Below are positions 760 through 36,588 of a stretch of 40,218 nucleotides of DNA, one piece after another. Source of the stretch: Stephanodiscus triporus (taxonomy: Eukaryota > Bacillariophyta > Thalassiosirophyceae > Thalassiosirales > Thalassiosiraceae); the NCBI GenBank assembly GCA_036939755.1, contig JALLAZ010006326.1, forward strand, positions 1 through 40,218, written 5' to 3'. The notes beneath the pieces are model-generated. The model was not told the origin of the DNA. It saw only the letters and a program-made list of their open reading frames with translations, and made no database searches. The translations under genes and the position numbers were made by a program. How positions within the stretch are numbered: position 1 is the stretch's first letter; each line of letters starts with the position of its first letter.

Positions 760-960
760 TACTCCATTAATTCATTAATACGTCATTAATTCATTAAAAC
801 TCCATTAATTCATTAAAACTCCATTAATTCATTGATGCGACAGTTATTTATACCAGTTCCTACGTTGAAATCATTACTTTGTCATTGATTCATTACTGTG
901 ACATTTTTTCATTAATACTCCATTAATTCATTAAAACTCCATTAATTCATTGATGCGACT
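760..960. repeat. AT-rich short tandem repeat cluster
   Basis: The motif CTCCATTAATTCATTAA is repeated with small variations at about 760-835 and again at about 918-955. A longer block ending in TTCATTGATGCGAC is present in two copies (about 815-841 and 935-959), so the cluster itself looks duplicated. No coding potential. Confidence 0.8.
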
Positions 961-1714
961 AATACTTAAGTACGTACGTTGATTGGTTTCGCCGTTAGAT
1001 ACGATACCAGCAAAAAACACGGCGTCAGTCACGCCAAGACCCTCTCTGCGAGAGAGAGAGGTTCATTGTTAGGAGTTTACTACTGAGCTTGTTATGTAGA
1101 ATAGTACTCTACTCTTTACTTATCTACAGAAGTTCTCAGCTAAATGCCAACATCTGATTTATTCACAAGTCATTCCCACAGATGTTAATTATTTCATTAT
1201 AATTCCATCACTCTCTTGTCCCACCACCAGAAGTCGACATTTTAATGCGAGAGGTGGCATGCCGAGGTGTGCGTGAATCGTGGAAGGAATTAACCTTCGA
1301 TACGATACCACCAATCCCAAACAACACCGATGTAGCATCATCCCATCACTACCTATCATGCCTCCCCCCCAATGACAGCCAACTGTCCTCAAAGACGAGT
1401 CTCCGACACGTCGTTCTGGCATGAATGGCAATGGGACGATGGATCCGCCACTGTCAACAGGCGCGTGTTGGCAACACCCTGACTTCAAGTAGGATTACCC
1501 AATGTTGAAAAAATATTGAAATTCAGCAAGTTGTTTTCGGTTGCTACTTACACAACCCCCACGTGGGAATAAATGAAAATAGTACTATCCGTTTACACGC
1601 GCGGTCGAAGAATCTGGATCTTTGGCGACGAGATGTTCCGGATCCCCGAAACTAACCCCTAACGCCATCCAACTCGACGATTTGAAACCACACATCATCA
1701 TCATCATAGCAGCG

Positions 1715-3364
1715 ATGTTATCTCGAGCCTCCCTAGCGCTCGGCGATCGCCTCCGTCAGCGCGCCACCGGCGCGAATGCCGCCGCCGTCGCCGCCGTCCG
1801 CCGATTCTCCCCCACGTCCGCGTCCATGGAACAGTACGACCTCGTCGTGATCGGGGGGGGTCCCGGCGGATACGTCGCCGCCATCAAGGGCGGACAGCTC
1901 GGCCTGAAGACCGCGTGCGTCGAGATGCGCGGCACACTGGGCGGGACCTGCCTCAACGTGGGATGCATCCCCTCGAAGGCCCTGCTGAATAGCTCCCACC
2001 ACTACCACGACGCGTTGCACCACTTCGCCGATCACGGCATCAACGTCGGGGAGGTGACCATGGACGTCGCCAAGATGCTCGAGGCGAAGGCCGCGACCGT
2101 CAAAGGCCTGACGGGCGGGATCGAGCATCTGCTCAAGAAGCACAAGGTGGACTATTACAAGGGCAGGGGGAGCCTTTCGGGTCCGAACGGGGTGTCGGTG
2201 ACGCCGAACGACGGCGGATCCGAATTGACGCTCGAGACGAAGAACGTCATCATCGCGACGGGGTCGGAGGTCACGCCCCTGCCGCCGGTTCCCGTGGACA
2301 ACGCGCGGGGGAAGATCGTCGATTCGACGGGCGCGCTCGACATAGCCAAGGTGCCCGGGAAACTGGCGGTCGTGGGGGGGGGGGTGATCGGACTCGAGAT
2401 GGGATCCGTATGGTCCCGCCTAGGATCGGAGGTCACCGTGATCGAGTACATGGATCGCGTGTGTCCCGCCATGGACGTGGAATTGACGAAGAAATTCCAG
2501 GCGACGCTGAAGAAGCAGGGGTTCAAGTTCCGAATGTCGACCAAGGTCGTGAAGAGCGAGGTCGTGGGCGATTCCGTGCACATTACCACCGAGCCTTCCA
2601 AGGTTAGTTTTCTTGTTTCTTTCGTGGATTTGTGTTCACGATGATTATTTATTTTCTTTGCCTCGCGGAATTTACGCTTTGATAATCGTATTTTTCGAAC
2701 AATCGTGATCCGATACTTACAGGGAGGAGATCAAACGACCGAGGTTTACGACATAGTTCTGGTCGCCACCGGACGCAGGCCGTACACCGCCGGACTCGGC
2801 CTGGAAAACCTCGGTATTCAAACAGACAAACTCGGCAGGATCGACGTGGATTCGCACTTCCGCACGGCGGTGCCGAGCATCTACGCCATCGGCGACTGCA
2901 TCGACGGGCCGATGCTCGCGCACAAGGCCGAGGAGGAGGGCATCGCCGCGGTGGAGACGATCGCGGGATACGCCGGGCACGTCAATTACGACGCCATCCC
3001 GGGGGTGATATACACGTTCCCGGAGGTGGCGTCGGTGGGGAAGACGGAGGAGGAGCTGAAGGCGATGAACGTGCAGTACAATAAGGGGACGTTCCCGTTC
3101 GCCGCCAACTCGCGCGCGCGCGCCAACGCTACCGGCAATTCGGAGGGATTCGTGAAGGTCCTCGCGGACAAGACGACGGACAAAATCCTTGGAGTACACA
3201 TCATGGGACCGAACGCCGGGGAGATGATCGCCGAGGGAGTACTGGGCATGGAATACGGAGCCGCCTCGGAGGATTTGGCCAGAACTTGCCACGCGCATCC
3301 GACCCTCAGCGAGGCATTCAAGGAGGCGTGCATGGATGCGTACGATAAGCCTATCCATTTTTAA
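1715..3364 (+). CDS. DLD: Dihydrolipoamide dehydrogenase, mitochondrial (E3 subunit), two exons
   Basis: Spliced CDS 1715-2602 joined to 2723-3364; the 120-bp intron begins GTTAGT, ends CTTACAG and is phase 0. The product is 509 residues, the usual length for the mitochondrial enzyme. It reoxidises protein-bound dihydrolipoamide with FAD and NAD+ in the pyruvate, 2-oxoglutarate and branched-chain dehydrogenase complexes and the glycine cleavage system. Visible features: an Arg/Ala-rich presequence (residues 1 to about 38), the FAD dinucleotide motif [10 protein letters not shown] (47-56), the redox disulfide in [16 protein letters not shown] (Cys79 and Cys84), the NAD-binding [12 protein letters not shown], the second FAD motif [16 protein letters not shown], and the C-terminal HAHPTLSE with the His-Glu catalytic pair. 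I chose ATG 1715 because the frame upstream has no ATG and this start gives a targeting peptide. The neighbouring gene is convergent. Confidence 0.96.
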
Positions 3365-3784
3365 TCTATTTTGTTTATGGAGGGGTCGGAGATGTGCTTG
3401 GTGGTATCTAGGCTCGAGGAAAATTAGAGAGGGACGATGAAATGAAATAAACCTGTCTTTGATGAATGTGAATATCTGAATTAGAACTGGGACATAAATG
3501 TGTGACGTAACTTTTTGCATTGAACCGAACCAGAACCAACGAACGGATGCTGGTAGGAAAACTTGAACGCGACGACTGACGACAACAGCACGTCGATCAA
3601 TGTTTCGTTTTCTTGAGGACAACCGATTTTTGCCGGCATTCGATGATGAAGGTCATGCGATTCACAGCGCGACGATAATCCTCATGGCAAAACTAATCTT
3701 CTTCAGAGATATGTAATGATTATGTGACGTCGCTTCCGTATCGACAAACGCCCCGCGATCCCCCCCCGATCGCCCTGTCACATC
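3365..3784. other. Convergent intergenic region
   Basis: About 420 bp between the 3' ends of the dehydrogenase and the transporter. AATAAA-like sequence occurs at about 3445 (GAAATAAACC), which could serve the plus-strand gene. The minus-strand open frame running through here (2717-3622) is antisense to conserved dehydrogenase exon 2 and is not a gene. I see nothing else. Confidence 0.6.
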
Positions 3785-5520
3785 TCACAACAAATGGGGA
3801 AAGAAGGAGTTCACCACCGACATCCACGCCCCCGCCAATGCCAAGAATGCCCCTAGCCCGATCAGGCCCCTGTTCCACCATCGCTCGATCCTCAACGCCG
3901 TAGTCGCCTTCAGCGTCCCGTCGCCAATCCGACGCGATGTCGACTTCAGGAAAAGGAACGACGGTATCATGTATATGAGGGCGGATCCGAGCATTGCGCC
4001 ATTCAGACTGACGACGAATCCTGCGTCGTTCGTTAGCAGGGCCAACGCCGTGACCGACCCGACGAGCCACCTCGAGGTACGATAGTGCACCTCGTCCGAT
4101 ACCTCCTTCCCGCCGTGGAAGATCTGGTAGTATGCGTTCTTCAGCGCGTTGGAGAGGAAGCCGTACGAGCCGAGGAGGCTCACGCCCATGAGCAGGCGGC
4201 ATAAGGTGGCGCCGGAGTCCAGCGTGGAGTAATTGTTTAGGATCACACCCCTGGACGCACCGCCGAAGGTCAGGAAACCCAGGCACATCATCAGGGCGCT
4301 GATGAATACCGTGATCGCGAAGCCGATGATGGACAATTTGGCGAATCGCGCGGGTGTGGGATCCTCGAGGGTCTGGTAAAAATCCGGACTCGACATGTGC
4401 ACGAGGAAGGCCGTGGCCGCCATGGACGACACGACGAGGAGGGACGTCGGACCCCGCGTGCCCGTGACGCCGAAGCTCGGACGCAGGTCCGGGGGGAGCG
4501 AGCGGAGGTAATCCGTCGCCCCCCTCCCCCCCCCGGCGACTGACGACGAGTAGGCCCCGCCCGGGAGGGCGCGCATCGTCATGACGACGCACGTGGCGAG
4601 TATCCCGACCACGCCGCTGATCGAGACCGGCGCCAGAGCCGCCAGGGACCTCAGTCGGCACATCGGGTACACGCCCAGGAGGGAGATCGCGGCGACGCTG
4701 AATTGACGCGTCGACGCGACGCTGCCACCCGGCAGTCCCGCGGTGATGGCGAGGCTGCGGAGGGTGTCGCCGAGCGTGATCGAGTACGCGAGGCACGTGC
4801 CGTAGCACGTTATCATCACCACGAGGCTCACGAGCCACGACGTCGACGTCCCGACCTCGCGATCCCACAGTTGACCGATGCTCGTCACCCTGACACCGTC
4901 GTCCCCCCCCCTCGATTCTTTCCCGGCGACGGAAGTGAGTCGACCGAGGAGGTGAAACGTGTACGCGCTGATGGCGCCGAGCACGAGCAGGATCGAGGTG
5001 GTGGGAACGAGGCTTTTTTTTTGTTTTCGATACATCGCCGATATGAGAGGGTGCGTGCGAAGAGACGAAAGTGACGATCCAGGGGTGAGGACCGGACGAC
5101 GATGCAGACTGGTGGCGAAAGGTTCGGGACGACGACTATTACACTGTATGTGTGCGCGCGCACTCACGCTCCTCGCACGTCGCCGTAGGCCGCGACGCCC
5201 GCCGGCAGGGACAGGACGCCCGATCCGACCGCCCCCTTGATGAGGTTGAAGGAGGCGGACGCTATCGTCGACTTGCCGCCCCCATCGTTGTCGCTGTCGC
5301 CGTCGGCGGCCGTGGCGGACGATGCGGCATTCGCCCTCAGAGCGGTGGCGTCGACCCCGACCCCGACCCCGATCCCGGCGATGGAGGCGAGGGCTCGTCG
5401 CGTTTTGACATTGTCGCTCGAGGAGAAGACGGAGGATGGACGGGAGCGGAACGCATCGGACGGCGTCGTCAACGCATCGACGAGGATGAAGATCGCGACA
5501 ACGCAGTTGGCGATCTTCAT
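3785..5520 (-). CDS. AAAP-family amino acid transporter with plastid-type presequence, two exons
   Basis: Spliced CDS complement(3785-5012, 5168-5520), 526 residues. The 155-bp intron runs from GTGAGT at 5167 to the acceptor at 5013; splicing restores ...AYGDVRGA|LVPTTSILL without a frame break. The start of the fold, FNLIKGAVGSGVLSLPAG, is the typical first membrane helix of amino acid/auxin permeases (Pfam Aa_trans). About ten further hydrophobic segments follow. The N-terminus, MKIANCVVAIFILVDALT, looks like a signal peptide and is followed by PSDAFRSRPSS and a Ser/Arg-rich stretch. This resembles the heterokont bipartite plastid signal, where the residue after cleavage is Phe. An upstream in-frame ATG at 5562 would add 14 residues and weaken the signal peptide. 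Substrate and membrane are inferred; a plastid envelope or complex-plastid membrane is possible. Confidence 0.85.
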
Positions 5521-5962
5521 CGTGAGGTACTGTTCGTTCAGATCAGCCACAACTACAACCATTAACACCAACGGCTGAGGCGACTTCGGACCTCCCCTCT
5601 TCGCCCGCGGACCGACTCCAATTCAAAAATCACAATAAATTATTATTATCTGGGGAGAGAATTATCCGGTCTCTTCCCCCTCCTTTCTCCATTGAAATCA
5701 CCTTGATATTATCAACGGCAGCCTCACGGCGGTGCTTATTTTTGTATTTTACTACACACAACTACCAAGACAACCCAATCAACCCCCCCGATCATCCCCA
5801 ACTGAACGCGACGCCGGTCCTCCTGGAACACACACTTAAGAATCCGACGTTTCCCCCCCTGTCCCAGACGAATATTCCGGCGACGGCCACGATCGCTACT
5901 CCCCGGAATCTAAGACGACTGTGACTTTACAGGAATACCTCAAATCTTAACCCAATTTGCTT
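5521..5962. other. Intergenic region between the transporter promoter and the retrotransposon
   Basis: This stretch contains the 5' leader and promoter of the minus-strand transporter and, on its right side, the unresolved 5' boundary of the retroelement. Composition becomes C-rich and purine-poor from about 5700 onward, which may mark the start of the element. The 73-codon open frame at 5703-5924 has low-complexity composition and no support. Confidence 0.45.
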
Positions 5963-6316
5963 ATGACCGAGACCTCCAACTCAAACCTACGACGACACGA
6001 ACAACGATTCTTCGCACGGAAACATAAGGATCAGCGAAAATTCATCCAAGGAGTTAAACGATTGGTGCACTTACGAGCGGTGCGAAGACACTTAGAGGAA
6101 GTCGCCAGACACCTGGCCAAAGAACCGCGGAAGAGTCTACGGCTGCAGTGGAAACAACACAACGCTCGGTCGATACGAGAGCAAGGGGGCCCGTGGTACA
6201 CCCTTATTCTCTTCGGCGAAGAGGGCTACTGGTCCAACGGCGGGCCATCGCTCGAAGGGCATAACATTACCATCTTCCCATCTCGCCTTCCTTGTCCCCA
6301 CGTCGGCAATTTCTAG
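5963..6316 (+). CDS. Small basic leader ORF of the retroelement
   Basis: 117 residues from ATG 5963; not recognised. The N-terminal two thirds is rich in Arg, Lys and His (for example RRHEQRFFARKHKDQRKF and VKRLVHLRAVRRHLEEVARH), consistent with an amphipathic, nucleic-acid-binding helix. The last 30 residues are Gly/Pro-rich. It lies about 370 bp before the second leader ORF and in another frame from ORF1. It may be a small protein of the element or an upstream ORF in its leader. No domain supports either reading. Confidence 0.4.
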   Translation: MTETSNSNLRRHEQRFFARKHKDQRKFIQGVKRLVHLRAVRRHLEEVARHLAKEPRKSLRLQWKQHNARSIREQGGPWYTLILFGEEGYWSNGGPSLEGHNITIFPSRLPCPHVGNF

Positions 6317-6683
6317 TGTCCTTCTGTAACATCAACACTCCAACCTACTCAATATCTCCCAAACACTACCAAAGAATCTCCATTGTGCAGATCTGATAAA
6401 ATTGGCGGGTGGATAGAAGAACAAATCTCCTGTCTAAGAAAGAATCGTACGACACCACCCATCAACTGACGCAAGAAATCACACACAATCCGCTACGCCT
6501 ATCATATTTCCTTTCAAACAGATCTTCCCAAACACAAGAAAAATATATCTCGGTCGTTACTAGACGAACAATGACGGCCATGATGTGCCACCCACCTCCC
6601 GTGTCCTCAATGATTAACAACAAGAGGAGAGTGCATTATTGTTTGCACTCTCTGACCCTCGCCATCATTTTTCTCAACATATT

Positions 6684-7175
6684 ATGGTCAACGAACAACC
6701 CCTGGCAACAGTCCACCCATCAACTACACGCCTCTATACGACGAAGCCACTTGTGCGGCAATACGAAGAACTACTTACTCCACCGAATACCCCTCCCGAT
6801 TTGGGAGACCTCTGTTTCCTCCACAGTCAACTTCTTTTCGTGGCGAAAGTCTGCCGCCTCCGCGGTCTCCCCGAAACGTCGGTCTCTAGAGTTCTGGAAG
6901 AGGCAGAAGCTTTCCGGTTACGCTGTCGCCGAGGACCCCCAGCGGAGCGCCTCTCTCCCCGCGAAGAGCGTCACCTCCAAACAGCGATCGATCAGGTTAT
7001 TTTTGCCCCCACGACCCCCCCCCGCACCGAACATCTTGGCCAAGGAAACGCCATTTGTCCCTTACACTGGCACTCATCATTTATCACGGGTAAACCCCCA
7101 AACACAAGCTACACATCCGTCCACGTCGACGACGCGGCACCAACATCTCTTCCCCAGACGGATTCATCTACCTGA
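6684..7175 (+). CDS. Second leader ORF of the retroelement, overlapping the ORF1 frame extension
   Basis: 163 residues from ATG 6684, of unknown family. The composition is protein-like, with alternating charged and hydrophobic residues, such as RQYEELLTPPNTPPDLGDL and SVSRVLEEAEAFRLRC. The ORF1 reading frame is also open across the whole interval, and the sequence is purine-poor on this strand, which makes stop codons rare, so openness alone is weak evidence. The residue pattern in this frame looks better than in the competing frame. It could be a translated leader protein or a chance ORF. Confidence 0.35.
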   Translation: MVNEQPLATVHPSTTRLYTTKPLVRQYEELLTPPNTPPDLGDLCFLHSQLLFVAKVCRLRGLPETSVSRVLEEAEAFRLRCRRGPPAERLSPREERHLQTAIDQVIFAPTTPPRTEHLGQGNAICPLHWHSSFITGKPPNTSYTSVHVDDAAPTSLPQTDSST

Positions 7176-26847: not shown

Positions 26848-29421
26848 TTAGTTCCAAGGGAAATAGTCGCCAAAATTATCACAAATGTTTCTAAATCTCA
26901 CCACATGTCCCCCACTCTTCGTCAAAGAAAGCATAATATTACCAGAGCCAGAGTTCACCAAGCCCTTCAGATCAGTGGTGCCCAAGGTGCGCCATCCAAC
27001 GATTGGATCGTCTAGAGCCATTAGGAATGCAAATGGAATTGATACGTTTCCAATTCTGCCCCATTCATTTCTTGGTGATGCTGACTCTGTTGGACCAAAG
27101 AGCTGAAATTCAGGCTCTCGATCTCCCATCGCGGACATCTCAGAATAGTAGTGCAAAAGGCTGTCAAATGAATTGTAGGTTACAATGGCCTCAGCATCGA
27201 TGTCCTTTTCGTGTAATAAGACAGAGAGAGATGAGATAAAAGATATTGAATGATGATCGATGTTAAATTTGGCAGTTATTGTATGCAAATTTGTAGGCAC
27301 ACTCACAGAAAGGGACGTTGCACGCAACATACCCAAGAATCGATCTTTCGTCAACCTATTCTTATAATGTCCTGCATATTTGCCAATTAAAATATCTTCT
27401 CTCCAAGTAAATGTAAGAATCGGTTGCCAGAGCCTCATGCTTCTCTTGAAATTTATCTGTTGGCGCAGATCTAAGCCGCCACTTATGGACATAGCAGTAT
27501 CGAGTGCTAAAGGTATAAAGGATGAAGTAATGAGTGCGCTGTTGTTGGGGTATGAAAAGAAAGTCAAAAATGGATACTTCAACAACGCGTCATACCACAA
27601 TGTCGTCCTGACCGAGCAAGAAAGTTAGAAAGGACCACACCACCTTAAAAAAGAGTGAGAGAACAGATGAGTCGAATGAGTGAGGGCTCTTAGCAGCTAA
27701 TGTCTAGAAATCAAATTTCTAGAAGAAAAATTAAGAGAATACATGCTCTCACCCGTTGAGTATCCGACGCCTGCCAATATTTGTCGTGTTTGTATATTGT
27801 GGGCGTCTGCGAGGGAGATCAATCCTTTCCTCAGAACCCTCGCCACGGCATCAACGTCGCCAGTCCGTGCGCCGTGGAAAGTATTCCACGTGACTAAATG
27901 TGTATCCATCATGCCTCTCGCAATCATCACAACCACAGTACTGCCCTCTTCCCTTCTTCGCTTCACCATGTCCTTGATAAATTCTTCTTGACTCCCGCCG
28001 TTGAGGCCGTGCAATAGTAAGTACACTGGCTTGTTCAAGTCATGAATGAACATAACTTGCTTCCTTTTGTCATTGGTGCTGATGTGTTGCTGTTTTCCTT
28101 CTTCCTTTTTCTCCTCAGTCGCATCATCATCATTGACATGATTCGAATAAGGAAAAGCGATATCAAGTGCCAAATACTCTCCATCGAACTGATTTTGCGC
28201 CCAGACTCGTACATACTCCTGATCCTCCACCGAATTCACCAGGAAAGGTATCCCGGTACGTTGATCGCCGTTGACCAAATATGGTGTGGCACCATTTTCA
28301 ACATTGTACGTCCGAGACGATTCCGGCCAGTGTGATACGATAGATGATGTGAGGGCATTCGAAGTCGAATAGTAAAGTCCCTCGTTGATGCTTGGTAGAT
28401 CGATGCCAGGATGTGGAATGTGCCGTAGCGGATTTTCATAGGATTCTAGGATGATGGCGGCAGCAGCCTTGTTGGTCGACAGCAGTCCCAAGCGATGATC
28501 CAAAAAGACTAAGGGAGAATAGCCGAGTATCGTAGTAACAACATCCATCATTGCATTCCCACCGTCCGATCTCAGATATACGATGATGGTTACAACAATG
28601 ATTAGAGTAATTGCGCATCGAAAAAGATTGTTCGCGGAAGGAGCGGAAGCACACCTAACGGCCATGATACTTGACAATACGAAAAGATATAACCCGAACA
28701 ATCGTCCATATTCATAGACGTACAAAGAGTCAGTGAATATGACGGATGAGCTTGTCAATCCAACAATGCAAATGGCGAATTGCATTGTCATTGCTGTTTC
28801 TTCCTTCGTTCTTGTTGTATCGTCCTCTCTTCGTCTTTCATCCTGATTTTTTTTCGAATCGATGTCCTCTGTCGATTTCTTTTTGCTTGAATCGACATGT
28901 TTCCTTGCTGTTGCTGCGGATGTTGCTGCTGCAATAACTTCACGATGAACCCAGTACATCAGGCACAGCGGGCCCAAGAATATCGCAAACAACCGTAACC
29001 ATAATTCTGTCATGGCGAGAGAGGGCGCCGACATGTTGGACGCTGTCAACAAGGCTTCCGATATGGAATGATCGTGCAATTCCAGTAGAGATGAAGAACC
29101 GATCGTTGGCGGCGGTGGAATCAGTTGTGCCTGCGTAGCGGTGGCGTACATATTGGAGGTGGGGGTGTTCGATGCCATTGGAGCAGCATTCATATTGGGC
29201 AGTTCGAAGATGGTTCCCTCTGCGATCCGAGAGAGGAGATTCTCCCTCTCACTTTTATTGGTCAACATGCTGTCGCCGCAGAACGGATGCGACATCGGCA
29301 GGCCCAAATGATTCAAGAAGTCACGTGCAGTAACATCTAGCTTCGTTTTCATCTTCGTCGCGCTGCGGCCGCCGACCTGCTCGTCATCCACCACCTCTGG
29401 TGAGCAAAAAAACGACGACAT
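26848..29421 (-). CDS. Membrane-anchored alpha/beta hydrolase (EMB8/YheT-like), four exons
   Basis: Spliced CDS complement(26848-27204, 27307-27506, 27596-27643, 27753-29421), 757 residues. Donors are GTGAGA, GTATGA and GTGAGT; introns are 109, 89 and 102 bp. The third intron keeps the frame open, but removing it restores RATSLS|DIDAEAIV, as expected in the family. The catalytic triad is visible: Ser555 in GVGYSTGGG (nucleophile elbow), Asp704 or Asp705 in MALDDPIVG, and His739 in KSGGHVVRF. VYLLLHGLNGGSQEEFI supplies the oxyanion loop and SISGGLDLRQQ follows the nucleophile. About four hydrophobic segments lie between residues 135 and 290 (for example LFAIFLGPLCLMYWV), so the enzyme appears to be held in a membrane with a C-terminal catalytic domain. 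Yeast and plant relatives act on acyl esters; the substrate here is unknown. Confidence 0.85.
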
Positions 29422-29698
29422 GCTGGGTTATGCGTGTGAAGAATAACTTTTTTAATGTCATCAGCCGCTGTCCTGCCACCTTTGATAAGGCTGACAGCAA
29501 CTGTTTGGAATTCGCTTCCTTGACACCAGTTTTTTCATTTCTGAAACGAGGTTGGCGCATTGCTGAGGAGAGGGGGACAAGTCGCCCGAACGCTGAACGA
29601 GTGTTCTCATCTTGACACTTGTCCGGATTAATCCCTCGTCCTTAATCGGGAGTCTTCGCTCACGACGGACGGACCAGCCGTGCACGACAAAGGCCAAG

Positions 29699-29823
29699 CT
29701 TGAATAATCTACCGGAGTCTGCCTACGTAACTTACAGGTACGTAAGGCAGAACCGGTAGAGACTCAAAAATAAAATGGCAAAATCCCTACGTAGGAATTG
29801 AAAATGGGTGGTAAAAGCCAAAA
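29699..29823 (+). repeat. Left inverted repeat of the helicase element
   Basis: Matches the complement of 33088-33194 in several blocks. It contains an internal palindrome (29709-29759): arms CTACCGG..TCTGCC..TACGTA and TACGTA..GGCAGA..CCGGTAG around ACTTACAGG. A second perfect 10-bp palindrome, CCTACGTAGG, lies at 29786-29795 and is not shared with the right end. Confidence 0.75.
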
Positions 29824-30163
29824 CCGATCACTGTCCTCTGTCCACCAAAAATAACAAGAGCCCCACCATGGCGTTTTCCGCCGAAAATTCAATCTTGTAT
29901 ACCAAAGCCGCGCCGCCCCCCCATACTTAATCCGCTGACAGTTAAGCTTCTAACATCATGTTGATTGATGTGTGCCCCTAATTCCCGCCTTCGGGGGTGT
30001 GCTATTTCCTGTGTTCGACCCCCCCCACTACCATCTTTATTCAGTATTTGCGCTGCTCGTCGCCCTCTTGTTATTGTGCTATGTCGCCCATTATTCATTG
30101 CGCTTGCTGCCGCCGACCATCAGGTGTCATTGATAAACCCTCTGTTGTCCCCCTTCCGTCCAT

Positions 30164-30937
30164 ATGTCTTCTGATTCTTCATCAGCGCCTTCTTTGGCCC
30201 CCCCCCCTCGCGCCGGATTTGACGAAATCGCTGATATGATTCGCGATATTTGTCTGGGTGCTTCGCCAGTTTCAACAAATGTTTCATCGACAGTCGCCGC
30301 TGCTGGTCGCCAGTTGAAGTCGTCGTTCACCAATAGCACGGGGAAGCAGAAATTAAACAACGATACTACGACGTCGGCCACTCCTGCTGCGAAGCGACGT
30401 GCGACTACGACATCGGAACACGAGTGTGTATTAATTTCTCGATTAATCACTGTCAAGCTGACAGATGCCAGACAGTCGGCGGTGAATTACGACGATAGTC
30501 ACGACGACAATACTGTGGATGATCGTTCAGTGAACACCACAAACGACGACGAAAGCATCATGAGTAGATCGTCCGAACGTGTTGCGTACAACAATCTAGC
30601 CGATGACGCTTGTGATGATGATGGCGTTGTATCGGGTATCGATGGGTTGCCTGAACTGGAACGGACTCTAAAACGGCTGCATATTAAATACCGCAAACCA
30701 CTTGACAAATATGCAATGACGGATATTTTTGAGCATGGCCGTGTTGTGCTCAATGAAAATCTCCACAAAGCACGATTCAACGCTCTGCAAAAGATTGAAA
30801 AGAAAAGAGATTTTATTCGACGGTCTGTTTGTTATTTTTTGTATCAAATGTCTAAAAGGAGAGAGTTGTTGGAGAGGTGCTCTTTGCGATCATCGGATCC
30901 CATGACAGAATACTATCAACCATCGTGGAAAGTTTGA
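30164..30937 (+). CDS. Unknown 257-residue protein inside the inverted-repeat element
   Basis: ATG 30164, one exon, no recognised domain. The first 150 residues are Ser/Thr/Asp-rich and probably disordered, with a short central strand-like segment (ECVLISRLITVKLTDARQ). The last 100 residues are a basic, helical block: LPELERTLKRLHIKYRKPLD, KYAMTDIFEHGRVVLNENLH, IEKKRDFIRRSVCYFLYQM. It is convergent with the helicase and shares the inverted repeats, so it is likely to serve the same element, perhaps as a DNA-binding or accessory factor; this is inference. No catalytic acidic triad or recombinase tyrosine signature could be picked out. Confidence 0.6.
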   Translation: MSSDSSSAPSLAPPPRAGFDEIADMIRDICLGASPVSTNVSSTVAAAGRQLKSSFTNSTGKQKLNNDTTTSATPAAKRRATTTSEHECVLISRLITVKLTDARQSAVNYDDSHDDNTVDDRSVNTTNDDESIMSRSSERVAYNNLADDACDDDGVVSGIDGLPELERTLKRLHIKYRKPLDKYAMTDIFEHGRVVLNENLHKARFNALQKIEKKRDFIRRSVCYFLYQMSKRRELLERCSLRSSDPMTEYYQPSWKV

Positions 30938-30986
30938 TAAAAGATATGTGTCGTCAATAGAAGATGAACGAACTAAACACCGGAGA

Positions 30987-32846
30987 CTACTGATATACCC
31001 TCCCAGTACTGATCGAGTCTGGACATACCATAAATGTCAACACTTCCGACATCGACTTTAACTGAATCGCTCGATCAGACTTCAATGGGTTCTGCATAAT
31101 CCGTGCATACATTTTTTGTACACAAACAAGGGAGATGTGAACCTCATATCTATTGTCGCCAAGATCAGCTAATGGATTACGATCGACGCGACCCATCTCC
31201 TGCACAATGACATGCATATTCGAAGGCAGTCCGATATGATATGATCGCCGGCACAGCTGACTACTCACACCACAGTCAGCCGCTTTAGTCGCCGGCATGA
31301 TCCGGATGTTTGGAAGACTAGGGCACTCACTGTCATCCAATTGGTCCAGTCCGGACAAATCATTTCCAAATGCATGCATGACCCAAACCTTGAATTGAAC
31401 ACCATCATCCCCAGTCAACGATATGACATCACCGTCGATTTTGCACTTATCAAGTATGCTCTCCATCGAATCGGTGATTGAACCAATAGCCTGTTGTTTT
31501 GAATTTGTGTACACTATAATTTTCAAATCAGTAGGATCCTTGAGATCCTGGGACACACTGCTGGAAACCGATTGAGATGGCTTCCCACATACGTTAACGT
31601 CGATGACGATTTGGCGACGGGATAACTCCAACCATAACACTTTGTCTGGTGGGCGTTGGTAGAGAGCGGTGATAACATCTTGATCACTCTGCCGAAATGT
31701 TGCCGACATTACAAGACGGTTACACTTCGTGGGCTGGTTCTCGTAAATACGCTTGAGCGTCTTCATGGCCGTCCGAAATTCAGGACGAAAAGCACGGCCG
31801 TCTTGAGCAACAGAATGAGCCTCGTCCACGACAATCAACCGGATAAGGTCCCGCGATGAAAGGGTGACCAACACCTTCTGCCAGAAGGTACCCGGTTGAA
31901 GGGATTGTGGGGAGGCGTATAAAAAGATTGACACAAACTCAGCCTCACGTGGGTTTAGCGAAATAAGACGATTGCTCAATACACGAGCATCGACGCCCAT
32001 GTGTTCGTCGAGGTGATAAGCCTCGATGAAGTTCTGCTCGTTAGTCGACTTGGAGACTTGGTCGCTACCGAGGCCAACCAGCGGTACCATCGTCAGTGTG
32101 ATCCCAGTCTGCAATGCGCCAACGGTGAGTGGGACCGCCGATTTACCGGACCCAGTCTTGGCAATTAGGTATAAAATCCTATCCCGCTGAAACGCAAGAT
32201 CGGCCACAGCCCTTATCTGGAAGTCGCGAGGGTAGCGGATCCCCCAATCATCAAGCATGGCTTGACGTATTATTTTCTCGTGGTCAGGGCTCACACCATC
32301 CACGTGCGAGTCGGCGACCTCGCCTCCCAAGGCCTCGCGACGATGGGGAGCAGTTAATTGATCGTAAGGCGTTGGATGACTGCCGCGTGGGTCAAGCTGA
32401 GTCCCCGGAATAATGGTGCCATCCGACGCGTCGTCGTCGTCGTCAGCAGACGCGTTGTCAGCACTGGTGTCGGGATTGTCAGAAGACGCATCATCGATGT
32501 CGGTGGCAGGATCGTCAGCAGCTGCATTGTCATCGTCTTCTTCATTGGGAGCGGCGGAATCGCCAGCAGACGCGAAGGGGTAGGATCTAGCGGAGTTTGT
32601 CCTGGCATATGGATTGATATAATCAACGTTTGGATCGAGACGAAAACGGAGTCCGCGCAACGTTGAAATTCCCCTATCTTCGGAAGGAGACAACGGACGC
32701 AACGAGGGACGGATCGAAGCAAGCCGGGCATGGGGATTGATAGTCGACTCCATGTCAGCATCCTCGGCGCCACTGGTTGGGGACGCGACTGGAGCGTTGC
32801 CTAGAACCAGGGGATCGACGAGGGGGGAGGGGGGGGGGACGATCAT
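30987..32846 (-). CDS. RecQ-like superfamily 2 DNA helicase
   Basis: 619 residues from ATG at 32846. An Asp/Ala-rich N-terminal third precedes the helicase core. Motifs: DFQIRAVADLAFQRD (motif 0, before the Walker A), AKTGSGKSAV (motif I, about residue 229), MVPLVGLGSDQV (Ia), VVDEAHSVAQDGRAFRPEF (motif II with the RecQ-type aromatic-rich loop, about 339), VMSATF (III), KIIVYTNSKQQA (IV), ATKAADCGV (V) and QEMGRVDRNP (VI, about 548). The DEAH-x7-G-x2-FRPE pattern is specific for RecQ. Motif VI has QEMGRVDR instead of the usual QETGRAGR. No RQC or HRDC domain is evident after the core. A better N-terminus (MSSERIPSLHQSRR at about 32937) lies in another frame and would join across a poly-G run near 32830, so the true start may be there. 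Confidence 0.85.
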   Translation of the reverse strand: MIVPPPSPLVDPLVLGNAPVASPTSGAEDADMESTINPHARLASIRPSLRPLSPSEDRGISTLRGLRFRLDPNVDYINPYARTNSARSYPFASAGDSAAPNEEDDDNAAADDPATDIDDASSDNPDTSADNASADDDDDASDGTIIPGTQLDPRGSHPTPYDQLTAPHRREALGGEVADSHVDGVSPDHEKIIRQAMLDDWGIRYPRDFQIRAVADLAFQRDRILYLIAKTGSGKSAVPLTVGALQTGITLTMVPLVGLGSDQVSKSTNEQNFIEAYHLDEHMGVDARVLSNRLISLNPREAEFVSIFLYASPQSLQPGTFWQKVLVTLSSRDLIRLIVVDEAHSVAQDGRAFRPEFRTAMKTLKRIYENQPTKCNRLVMSATFRQSDQDVITALYQRPPDKVLWLELSRRQIVIDVNVCGKPSQSVSSSVSQDLKDPTDLKIIVYTNSKQQAIGSITDSMESILDKCKIDGDVISLTGDDGVQFKVWVMHAFGNDLSGLDQLDDSECPSLPNIRIMPATKAADCGVSSQLCRRSYHIGLPSNMHVIVQEMGRVDRNPLADLGDNRYEVHISLVCVQKMYARIMQNPLKSDRAIQLKSMSEVLTFMVCPDSISTGRVYQ

Positions 32847-33087
32847 CGTCGTCTTCGTCTTTGTCAGAGGCGGAGTAGGGATTCCCCCAAGTAATCCGCC
32901 GCGACTGATGAAGGCTAGGGATGCGCTCCGATGACATGATATGAATCCTGAAATAATGGTGCTTGCGAGGGGAGGGGGGGGGAGGAATTCGATTGGGGGG
33001 GTGTGGGAAGGGCAGAAAAACCCCAAACATATGTAATCTACAGTAATACCTGTCGCGTTCCCACACCTCGAAAACTCACTAACAAAA

Positions 33088-33194
33088 TTTTGGCATTTAC
33101 CACCCCTTCTGCCATTTTATTTTTGAGTCTCGGGCTGATCCTGCCCCTACGTACCTGGAAGTTACGTAGGGCGGGTAACAGCTCGATATTCAAG
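33088..33194 (-). repeat. Right inverted repeat of the helicase element
   Basis: Complement of the left repeat, with about 20 bp fewer because the CCTACGTAGG block is missing. It has its own dyad (about 33135-33184): GCTG..CCTGCCCCTACGTA against TACGTAGGGCGGG..CAGC. Sequence differences between the two ends are largely compensated within each stem, which suggests that the folded shape is retained. Confidence 0.7.
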
Positions 33195-33267
33195 ATTGAG
33201 TGGCCAAGACCGGAAGTTGTCACATCCAAAATCTCTTGGTAATCATTATTGACTGATTATATGCAAT

Positions 33268-33486
33268 ATCCCACCATTGTGGGATTTTCTGATTTCTCCG
33301 GATTTTCACCGTGGTGGGAGGTTTCGAAGACAGATACTCTCTCTCTTTTGTACCTGTTTTGTCGTATGTATACGTAAATACCCTTTTTCAGCGAGGGTAT
33401 TTTTATGTGGGATTGAGGGGCGCAGGGTGGTACTTTTTACCGGAAAATCCCACATTTTTTGTTAGGAGGAACCGCAAAATCCCACA
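33268..33486. repeat. Short inverted-repeat cluster upstream of BDP1
   Basis: ATCCCAC-CATT-GTGGGAT forms a hairpin at 33268-33285. TGTGGGATTTT (33278-33288) recurs inverted as AAAATCCCACA at 33444-33454 and 33476-33486, and partly direct at about 33408. AAATACCC and GGGTATTT (33376-33383 and 33395-33402) form another perfect stem. The arrangement resembles a miniature inverted-repeat element of about 210 bp, or a set of binding sites in the BDP1 promoter. Confidence 0.5.
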
Positions 33487-33697
33487 CACACAACACACAA
33501 CAAAAATAAAACACGCCAACCATGGCGACGTCCGCCACTGCCTCTTCTGCCGCCCATGGCATCGGGCGTCGACGACGGGCACGACGACGGCCGCGACTGC
33601 GACGGCGACGGCAACGACGACGGCGAATCGACCGCCGCGTCCCGCCGCCCCCGCCCCCCGCGGGAAGAGGAGGGCCGTGGCCATCGCCCTGCCCACG

Positions 33698-35721
33698 ATG
33701 ACGCGACGCGCGGCGGCGGGCGGCGGGATGGGGGGCGCCGCGACCGGGACGACGACGACCGCGACTGCCGCCGCCGCGATGTCGTCGTCGTCGCGGGGGG
33801 GGGGATCGGCGATTATTACGACCGCGTACGCGGCCGCGCACGCGACGACGACGACTACGACGATCGGGGACGGCGACGACGACGACGACGACGATGCGGC
33901 GAAGGGGGGGACGACGTCGTCGTCGTCGTCCGGCGGCGGCGGCGACGACGACGACGACGACGTCGTCGTACGCGCTTACGACGACGAGGCGGACGCTCTC
34001 GTGCTCGCGGCGGAGGCCGCGGCGGCGGCACTCGTCCTCGAGAACGGCGACGACGCGATGGACGACGACGACGACGATTGCGACGAAGATGACGATGACG
34101 ACGGCTTCGTCGTCGTCGTCGACGAGACGTCGCCGGCCGTCGCGAAGACGACGACGACGTCGGACGTTCGCGACGACGACCGTCCCGACGACGGGAGGGC
34201 ATACGATCGCGACGACTTCGTAGTCGAGGGTCATCCGCTCGGTCGGCCGTCGCAGGTGCGAACGTTCGAATCGAAAGTGCCAACATCGTCGTCGACGTCG
34301 CGCCCGCTGATCATGTCGATCGCTCAACGGAATTTCGTTACGCATTATTACGGCATCGCGGGGGAGGAGGAGGAGGAGGAGGAGGACGTCGGCGTCGAGG
34401 TCGTCGTCGGGGGTGGACGACGACGACTCGGAGGACGCGGACTCGAGGAGGGGGTGGAGGAGGAGGAGGATGAAGACGACGACGACTGCGACAATTCGAA
34501 GTTGTCGGGTGGCGGGAAGGGAGGGGCGGGCGCGGACGGTGACGACGACGACGAGTTCGAGGAGGTCGTCGAGGAGGGGGAGGACAACGACGAAACAGGC
34601 GATGACGCGGTCCTCGCTAACAATGCGCCCGTCGAGGCGGGGGTGGGAGGCGGGACGACGACGGCCGCCGCGACGACGACCGCCACCACCCTCAGGGCGC
34701 TGTGTCGGCGAATACCGCGTTCTTTTGGGGGGAAGGTCAAGGCGAGGAAACTCGGCGGGAGGAAGACGACGAGGGGGGGTCGTGGTACGACGAACGGCAA
34801 CAAGAACGGGGTCACGTTCTACGAGGGGGGGGACGCGGTTCGTTTTTTTTCCAAGGACGAGGAAGACGACGTGAATCCGTCGCCGGATACGGAGACGACG
34901 ACGACGATTACGACGGACGAACTACGTAAGACCGGAGGGGAGGACGCGCCCCCCCCGGCCCCGTCCCCCCCCAGCGGCCCGCAGGTGACCGTCGACGAGC
35001 ACGGTCTCATCGTCATCGAACCGTCCTCCCTCCTGCCGAATCCCGAATCCCGTCGGTCCACGTCCCAGATCGACGACGAGCTCGGCAACGCCGTGATCGA
35101 CGAGGGGGAGAACGCCGGACGATTGGGCGCGATACAGGCGAGGTACGACTCGTACACGACCAACGCGCGGACGACGCCGGCTCGTTGGACCCCGCGCGAG
35201 ACCAGGACGTTCTTCGACGCGCTCCGTCAGTGCGGACCGGACTTCGGATTGATGCAGACGTTCTGCCCGGGCAGGACGAGGATGCAGCTGAAGAGGAAAT
35301 TCAAGGTCGAGAGCAGGAAGAATGCTAGGTTGGTCGATATGGCGTTGGATCCCAAGTGCAAGGTCAAGTTAGGTGTGTGTATGCGCGTTTTTATTTTCAC
35401 GCCGCGCACAGTCATGATCATATTATTATTATCTCTCCCCTCATGCCCGTTTATCCTTACTTATTCAATCTCGCGTGGGGTTGTTGTTTCTCTCTAGACT
35501 TGTCGGTCTTTGGTGACGATTTGGAAATTCCGGAGGAGGTCCCCCCCTTCGCCGCGGGGGCGACGCCCGCTGACCCCGCGGCCCCTGGCTGTGCATCTTC
35601 TGCCTCGACGGCGAAGGAGCGAGGAGAAGAGACGGACAGGGGCGATGCGGCGAGTTCGGTGAGAACTCGAGACTCCCGCTCCAAGGCACTTCAGAGTCTT
35701 AGAAATTTCACAGATTTTTAA
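33698..35721 (+). CDS. BDP1: TFIIIB subunit BDP1 (B'' component), two exons
   Basis: Spliced CDS 33698-35372 joined to 35498-35721; the 125-bp intron starts GTGTGT and ends CTCTAG, rebuilding KVKL|DLSVFGDDLE. Product 632 residues. The diagnostic part is the SANT domain at about residues 490-545: ARWTPRETRTFFDALRQCGP, DFGLMQTFCPGRTRMQLKRK, FKVESRKN. It is preceded by VDEHGLIVIEPSSLL and followed by LDLSVF, all typical of BDP1. BDP1 joins BRF and TBP to recruit RNA polymerase III to tRNA and 5S genes. The N-terminal 400 residues are low-complexity Asp, Glu, Gly and Thr runs from GAC repeats. The start is uncertain: ATGs at 33522 and 33556 lie in the other two frames, so a frameshift or extra intron is possible. 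ATG 33698 is the first in the frame of the SANT domain after the retained upstream flank. Confidence 0.85.
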
Positions 35722-35767: not shown

Positions 35768-36180
35768 TTAATTTTCAGATTGGCTGCATCTCCTTCTTCC
35801 CCTCCACCCCCCCATCCCATGCCATTTAAGGTTAACGCACATCTGCGGGTGGGGGAACCATTCCATGATCGTCCCGCATCCCCTTTCGATCCGTTTTCCA
35901 AAAGGCAATCTTCTACACTTTGTGCCATGCCTATGACATGCTACTCCATCCCGGGCATAGTTGGTGCACCCCTCATGGACACAGCATTTCCTCTTCACAT
36001 TCACGCCATGCCTATGACATACTACTCCATCCCGGGCCAAGTGTGTGCACCCAACATGGCTGCAATGTTTGACCATCGTGCCATGCATGACAATGACACA
36101 TACTCCGCCCTTAACGGCTCCATTGGTGCACCCCTCATGGCTGCAGAGTTTCTTCTCCGCATTCGCACCATGCCCAATAC
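35768..36180 (-). pseudogene. Remnant of a Cys/His (CxxxxC..C..HG) repeat protein
   Basis: On the minus strand three tandem units are readable in one frame: LCSHEGCTNGAVKGGVC, HCSHVGCTHLARDGVVCHRHG and CCVHEGCTNYARDGVACHRHG. These follow the pattern C-x4-C-x8-C-x2-HG, a small zinc-binding repeat that I recall as common in diatom genomes. The first unit is interrupted (VIVMHG instead of RHG), and the frame upstream has a stop (about 36188) just before another damaged unit. An ATG-initiated part exists (36088-35768, 106 residues), ending in an unrelated tail. I read this as a decayed fragment, but a short functional protein cannot be excluded. Confidence 0.55.

Positions 36181-36517: not shown

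Positions 36518-36588
<71 letters not shown>

What the first reader, a model, noticed from the sequence alone, without database searches (positions are those of the whole stretch)
29699..33194. Inverted-repeat element built around a RecQ-like helicase, without a visible transposase
A 3.5-kb unit is closed by inverted repeats of about 110-125 bp and contains only a RecQ-type SF2 helicase and an unknown basic protein, arranged tail to tail. Known helicase-bearing transposons use other combinations (for example Helitrons with a Rep-Pif1 protein). A RecQ-like protein as the main gene of a TIR-bounded unit would be a new class, or a derivative that borrows its transposase. The unit lies exactly between two divergent host genes, where an insertion is tolerated.
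Basis: partly seen in the sequence, partly recalled or inferred. Interest (0 to 1): 0.85.

Follow-up and report, generated by a model that had tools for sequence, protein, structure and literature searches.

The report
Transposon remnant with RecQ-like helicase
This is a broken copy of a jumping gene from a diatom-like alga: it kept its helicase gene but lost most of the large protein that probably moved it, and fuller copies with both genes sit elsewhere in the same genome.

Summary
Window 29700-33202 is a TIR-bounded unit with a RecQ-like SF2 helicase and a 257-aa ORF, tail to tail, between two divergent ORFs. It is multicopy: its left TIR has 14 further matches on 13 other contigs of the same genome. 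"No transposase" is wrong in an informative way: the 257-aa ORF is the two ends of a ~1,400-1,500-aa protein, fused by an internal deletion. Fuller copies (C1013, C644; one fused frame on C106) carry that protein beside the helicase. The terminus is 5'-CACTCAAA, shared by two diverged subfamilies and probably a third. Of six other elements with both ends in view, two have 9/9 target-site duplications, one 8/9, three none. The window copy is defective: left end truncated, large protein gutted, helicase C-terminus lost. Helicase-bearing TIR transposons are known (AcademH, KolobokH). Helicase and 9-bp duplication fit AcademH, reported from animals and fungi, but the large protein matches DUF6589 only below cut-off in 2 of 10 proteins and its fold could not be modelled. 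Verdict: a decayed member of a divergent, AcademH-like helicase transposon lineage in a diatom-like genome.

The parts
29700..33202 (.). Whole element as preserved (right end complete, left end lacking the outermost CACTCAAA)
   Evidence: compared with 17 other ends of the same subfamily and 7 of a second;
29700..29823 (+). Left terminal inverted repeat, short of its outermost bases; includes the subterminal near-palindrome CCTACGTAACTTACAGGTACGTAAGG
33088..33202 (-). Right terminal inverted repeat; read inward it begins CACTCAATCTTGAAT
29693..29698 (+). GCCAAG, putative remains of the left target-site duplication
   Evidence: inference
33203..33211 (+). GCCAAGACC, putative right 9-bp target-site duplication
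   Evidence: inference from 9-bp TSDs in other copies
30164..30937 (+). 257-aa ORF: N-terminus (to about residue 84) and C-terminus (from about residue 66-78) of the large transposase-like protein, about 1,200 residues missing between
   Evidence: C-part 51% over 192 aa to P0003, 33% to C1013; N-part 35% to C1013, 37% to C644
30987..32936 (-). RecQ-like SF2 helicase, 649 aa from the ATG used here; about 150 C-terminal residues of its relatives are missing; N-terminal part possibly frameshifted at a G run near 32830
27697..29421 (-). Flanking ORF on the left
   Evidence: no Pfam match over the cut-off
33311..35497 (+). Flanking ORF on the right, Myb-like (Myb_DNA-bind_7)

Best explanation
The unit is a decayed, non-autonomous copy of a cut-and-paste-type DNA transposon. 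The full form encodes a ~1,400-1,500-aa transposase-like protein and, tail to tail, a RecQ-like helicase, between TIRs of about 115 bp that end 5'-CACTCAAA, and it makes 9-bp target-site duplications. Shown: a multicopy family with shared ends, the gene pairing, 9-bp TSDs (9/9, 9/9, 8/9) in three copies, and the internal deletion in the window copy. Inferred: the large protein is the transposase and binds the subterminal palindromes; cuts staggered by 9 bp give the TSD; the helicase opens or remodels the ends or helps repair the intermediate. The window copy could move only if another copy supplies the transposase; it may be dead.
For: Left TIR: 16 matches in the genome, 2 of them the window's own ends. 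Terminal 17-mer with up to 3 mismatches: 103 sites against 39 for the reversed control. The small ORF matches both the start and the end of the C644 1,404-aa and C1013 1,509-aa frames. Of 15 contigs matching the large protein, 10 also match the helicase; of 19 contigs matching the helicase, those 10 match the large protein (lists are lower bounds). On C106 both lie in one 1,910-aa frame that runs off the contig. CACTCAAA ends at C790, at C406 and C1013, and one 8-base match at C644. TSD 9/9 at C224 and C429, 8/9 at C597. The helicase tree groups window with C790, C1013 with C406, C644 apart, in step with the ends. Helicase window against C790: dN/dS about 0.085, synonymous sites near saturation.
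Against: Three of six other two-ended elements show no TSD (C994 3/9, C406 2/9, C62 5/9). At C224 the left end was placed at CACTCACAAAC, two bases longer than the pattern. The window's own TSD is only 6 bp beside a truncated end. No catalytic fold could be shown: both models had mean pLDDT 40.6. None of the contigs read shows a two-ended element with both genes intact: C1013 runs off its contig at the right, C644 lacks its left end and its helicase frame is broken, C62 and C406 have both ends but broken or partial coding. The ends of C106 were not found.
Confidence: 0.87

Rival explanations
1. It belongs to the AcademH lineage of the Academ superfamily, extended to diatoms; the DUF6589-like protein is a divergent Academ transposase. 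(A finer placing of the best explanation, not exclusive of it.)
For: RecQ helicase is reported in Academ (PMC3627910, passage) and AcademH makes 9 or 10 bp TSDs (PMC10045372, passage), as here. Two of ten proteins of the family match DUF6589: C644 core E 9.1e-6, 25.1 bits, and P0029 E 1.1e-3, 18.2 bits, cut-off 27. That DUF6589 is the Academ transposase is only my recollection and rests on no call.
Against: Eight of ten proteins scanned give no DUF6589 match, though P0002 and P0031 are fragments that end before that region. The AcademH paper is not held, so neither its termini nor its catalytic motif could be compared. Its title, seen in reference lists, names animals and fungi only.
Confidence: 0.5
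2. A distinct helicase-bearing superfamily, belonging to neither Academ nor Kolobok. (Also a finer placing of the best explanation.)
For: A profile search of 5.8 billion proteins at E up to 10 found six sequences, two of them rows of the profile and the other four close kin; DUF6589 scores stay below cut-off; no other Pfam family fits.
Against: The 9-bp TSD and the RecQ helicase already fit a known lineage; the search tool needs shared 5-residue words and misses remote kin.
Confidence: 0.3
3. A Mutator-like element (long TIRs, 9-bp TSDs) that took up a helicase.
For: Long TIRs and 9-bp TSDs are recalled as typical of MULEs; TIR and TSD lengths here agree.
Against: No MULE family among Pfam matches at E up to 10 for C644, C1013 and P0028-P0031. 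Helicase and large protein recur together across subfamilies. The search of the own genome for MULE transposase PF10551 did not complete, so MULEs elsewhere in this genome are not excluded.
Confidence: 0.12
4. A RecQ-only transposable unit in which the helicase itself is the mobilising enzyme.
For: The window copy by itself encodes only a helicase and a short ORF.
Against: The short ORF is a deletion remnant and fuller copies hold the large protein. The window helicase itself is truncated.
Confidence: 0.03

Closest known systems
AcademH (Academ superfamily)
   Same: TIR transposon with a helicase gene; 9-10 bp TSDs reported (PMC10045372, passage), 9 bp here
   Different: Reported from animals and fungi (title in reference lists; fungi also PMC10799480, passage); here a diatom-like genome; transposase similarity not established
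KolobokH and Kolobok-1_CCri
   Same: Transposase plus RecQ helicase; in Kolobok-1_CCri the helicase is on the complementary strand, as here; Kolobok is listed from a diatom, Fragilariopsis cylindrus (PMC9587614, passage)
   Different: Kolobok makes 4-bp TTAA TSDs; here 9 bp and not TTAA; no Kolobok-like Pfam match seen
Mutator-like elements
   Same: Long TIRs and 9-bp TSDs (recalled)
   Different: No MULE domain found in the large protein
Helitron
   Same: Carries a helicase (PMC12730594, passage)
   Different: Helitrons encode an HUH nuclease (same passage) and are recalled to lack TIRs and TSDs
RecQ and DpdF helicases
   Same: Helicase core matches DpdF (E 3.1e-20) and RecQ (E 5.1e-18) models, all below cut-off
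   Different: Carried inside a transposon; window copy lacks the weakly RecQ_Zn_bind-like region that relatives keep

Membership tests
AcademH | 9-10 bp target-site duplication | tested here: met
   9/9 at C224 and C429, 8/9 at C597; not seen at C994, C406, C62
AcademH | helicase gene inside the element | tested here: met
AcademH | Academ-type DDD/E transposase | tested here: inconclusive
   DUF6589 below cut-off in 2 of 10 proteins; models too poor; no Academ sequences held
AcademH | Academ terminal sequences | not testable with these tools
   paper not held; Repbase not available
KolobokH | TTAA 4-bp TSD | tested here: not met
   9-bp TSDs, not TTAA
KolobokH | RecQ helicase together with the transposase | tested here: met
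   if the large protein is the transposase
Mutator-like | MULE transposase domain | tested here: not met
   no Pfam MULE match at E up to 10 in C644, C1013 and P0028-P0031; own-genome search unanswered
Helitron | no TIR and no TSD (recalled) | tested here: not met
   TIRs and 9-bp TSDs present
RecQ helicase family | RecQ subfamily score over the curated cut-off | tested here: not met
   TIGR00614 62 bits against cut-off 219.8; still RecQ-like by PDB matches

The most novel reading that the evidence does not exclude
The large protein is the recombinase of an undescribed transposon superfamily in which transposase and RecQ-like helicase have evolved together as an obligate pair in diatoms, in tail-to-tail and in single-frame fused forms, with diverged subfamilies sharing CACTCAAA ends.
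Probability: 0.28. Interest if true: 0.68.

Novelty: new variant of a known kind. Interest (0 to 1): 0.5.

Why it matters
What a RecQ-like helicase does inside a cut-and-paste transposon is, as far as I know, open. Here several subfamilies in one small genome keep the pair, once as a single frame, with defined ends and 9-bp duplications. If it is AcademH-like, it extends that lineage beyond animals and fungi; if not, it is a second origin of the same partnership. It also shows how an internal deletion can make a transposase look like an unrelated small gene.

Tried and rejected
Structure of the large protein: two AlphaFold jobs (P0003 first, then P0028 first) gave mean pLDDT 40.6 each; no fold search was run on them. 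DUF6589 by search of G000: no match, and none in the 14 controls, so uninformative. Viral origin: no match of P0003 in phages; 50 stretches in viral contigs matched a pattern, none was confirmed. Papers: DUF6589 in 0; diatom, RecQ and transposon together in 5, 4 listed, of which I read only passages of PMC9587614; other listings, each only a part of what was found. Passages only were read of PMC9587614, PMC3627910, PMC10799480, PMC10045372, PMC12210899, PMC10294476, PMC8290104 and PMC12730594. The PF10551 (MULE) search of the genome was unanswered four times. Rejected: single-copy locus, chance repeats, Helitron, Kolobok, RecQ-only element.

Full report
Observation. The window unit is as described: TIRs 29700-29823 and 33088-33202, helicase 30987-32936 (minus), small ORF 30164-30937 (plus), between divergent ORFs. 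The TIR alignment scores 48.5 against at most 21.5 in 500 single-base shuffles. The helicase matches Pfam DEAD (E 1e-11) and, below cut-off, Helicase_C; PDB relatives are RECQ5, BLM and RecQ; NCBIfam gives DpdF and RecQ models far below cut-off. The protein shows AKTGSGKS, DEAH, SAT and QEMGRVDR; I name these motifs I, II, III and VI from memory.

It is a family. The window is contig C1320 of G000 (21.65 Mb, 1,324 contigs). Its first 172 bp match 16 places, 14 outside the window on 13 contigs. The helicase has 27 matches on 19 contigs, the small ORF 8. Printing 20 end regions showed that 13 of them continue outward with CACTCAAA or a near form of it before TTGAAT; of the other seven, one is the window's left end and six were only roughly placed. 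So the inner repeat is not the terminus. A 17-base end pattern with up to 3 mismatches has 103 sites against 39 for the reversed control, so a good part of the weaker sites is chance. A second subfamily ends CACTCAAATTCGAA (C597, C406, C1013, C30, C109 and others). A probable third end, CACTCAAACTCGACC, lies at 7046 on C644; it rests on one 8-base match in about 1.6 kb. The window's right end is CACTCAATCTTGAAT at 33202; the left end lacks the outer eight bases.

Target-site duplications. Seven elements have both ends in view, the window included. C224: GGGTTCGTA 9/9 (left end read as CACTCACAAAC, two bases longer than the pattern). C429: GGAGTTGGG 9/9. C597: 8/9. C994: 3/9. C406: 2/9. C62: 5/9. 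With a chance of about 1e-4 for 8 or more of 9 at equal base frequencies, three in six is not chance. In the window GCCAAG abuts the truncated left end and GCCAAGACC the right end; I infer that a small deletion removed ACC plus CACTCAAA.

The missing transposase. On C644 (L052) a 1,404-aa ORF and on C1013 (L053) a 1,509-aa ORF run tail to tail with the helicase. The window's small ORF matches their N-termini (35% over 80 aa to C1013, 37% over 70 to C644) and C-termini (33% over 183 aa to C1013, 39% over 92 to C644, 51% over 192 to P0003), with about 1,200 residues missing between. Of 15 contigs matching the large protein, 10 also match the helicase: C1320, C790, C1013, C406, C644, C106, C868, C353, C200, C62; nine helicase contigs and five large-protein contigs lack the partner, some of them short or cut contigs. 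On C106 both are in one open frame of 1,910 aa, large protein first, which runs off the contig.

State of the window copy. Its helicase ends at residue 649, where relatives (C790, C1013, P0005) go on for about 150 residues that include a cysteine-rich, weakly RecQ_Zn_bind-like stretch. An overlapping frame at 32755-33066 holds a start that resembles relatives' N-termini by eye, so a frameshift in the G run near 32830 is possible. Against C790, dN is 0.141 and dS 1.67 over 465 codons, ratio 0.085, with synonymous sites near saturation: the helicase was constrained for most of that history; whether also after the deletion cannot be told. A tree places the window helicase with C790, P0004 and P0005 (100/100), C1013 with C406 and C644 with P0006 (100/100 each), in step with the end subfamilies. 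C199 and P0023-P0027 fall outside; C1181 and C70 lie nearer on a long branch; the program warns of long branches, so deep forks are unsure.

What the large protein is. Pfam DUF6589 matches the C644 core (E 9.1e-6, 25.1 bits, profile 65-366 of 410) and P0029 (E 1.1e-3, 18.2 bits), both under the cut-off of 27; the other eight of ten proteins give none, two of them (P0002, P0031) fragments that end before that region. The profile search found six proteins, two of them rows of the profile itself. Structure models failed. Acidic positions invariant in five cores include D66 (DNWQ/DNFQ), E353, D397 (GDA/GDV), E539, E544, D635 and E636 in P0003 numbering; which are catalytic is unknown. That it is the transposase is inferred from its size, its place between the ends and the loss of function pattern, not shown.

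Host. Among 24 helicase relatives the only close one with an organism name is from Thalassiosira exigua (P0022), and P0010 has an MMETSP transcript. I therefore call the host diatom-like; its species is not established.

Known relatives. RecQ helicase in Academ (PMC3627910), AcademH 9-10 bp TSDs (PMC10045372), KolobokH and Kolobok-1_CCri with RecQ (PMC9587614), AcademH in fungi (PMC10799480): passages read. The AcademH paper itself was not seen. Helicase and TSD fit AcademH; membership is open for want of a transposase test. Nothing of this kind in diatoms turned up in the listings, which show only part of what they found; Repbase was not searched.

Noticed in passing
L084 (C106:19291-26074) 1051-6783 minus: Large protein and RecQ-like helicase fused in one 1,910-aa open frame that runs off the contig, helicase at the C-terminus.
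   Followed up: partly
C224 (L078) 1499-1612 and C429 (L082) 1501-1649: Tiny 114- and 149-bp elements with the family ends and perfect 9-bp TSDs, MITE-like.
   Followed up: yes
C597, C1013, C406, C30, C109 and others: A second subfamily with ends CACTCAAATTCGAA; its left end has 19 matches including itself, some of them (C200, C62) to the inner region of first-subfamily copies.
   Followed up: partly
window 32755-33066 minus: Overlapping frame with a start like that of helicase relatives; possible frameshift at the G run near 32830.
   Followed up: partly
window 30987-32936 minus: Helicase core scores slightly better against the DpdF model (a 7-deazaguanine DNA modification system, recalled) than against RecQ models.
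   Followed up: no
window 760-951: Imperfect tandem array of a 19/38-bp unit.
   Followed up: no
window 36520-36588: Perfect TG repeat, 34.5 copies.
   Followed up: no
window 35768-36088 minus: 106-aa ORF with repeated Cys/His motifs, looks like a small zinc-binding repeat protein (by eye).
   Followed up: no
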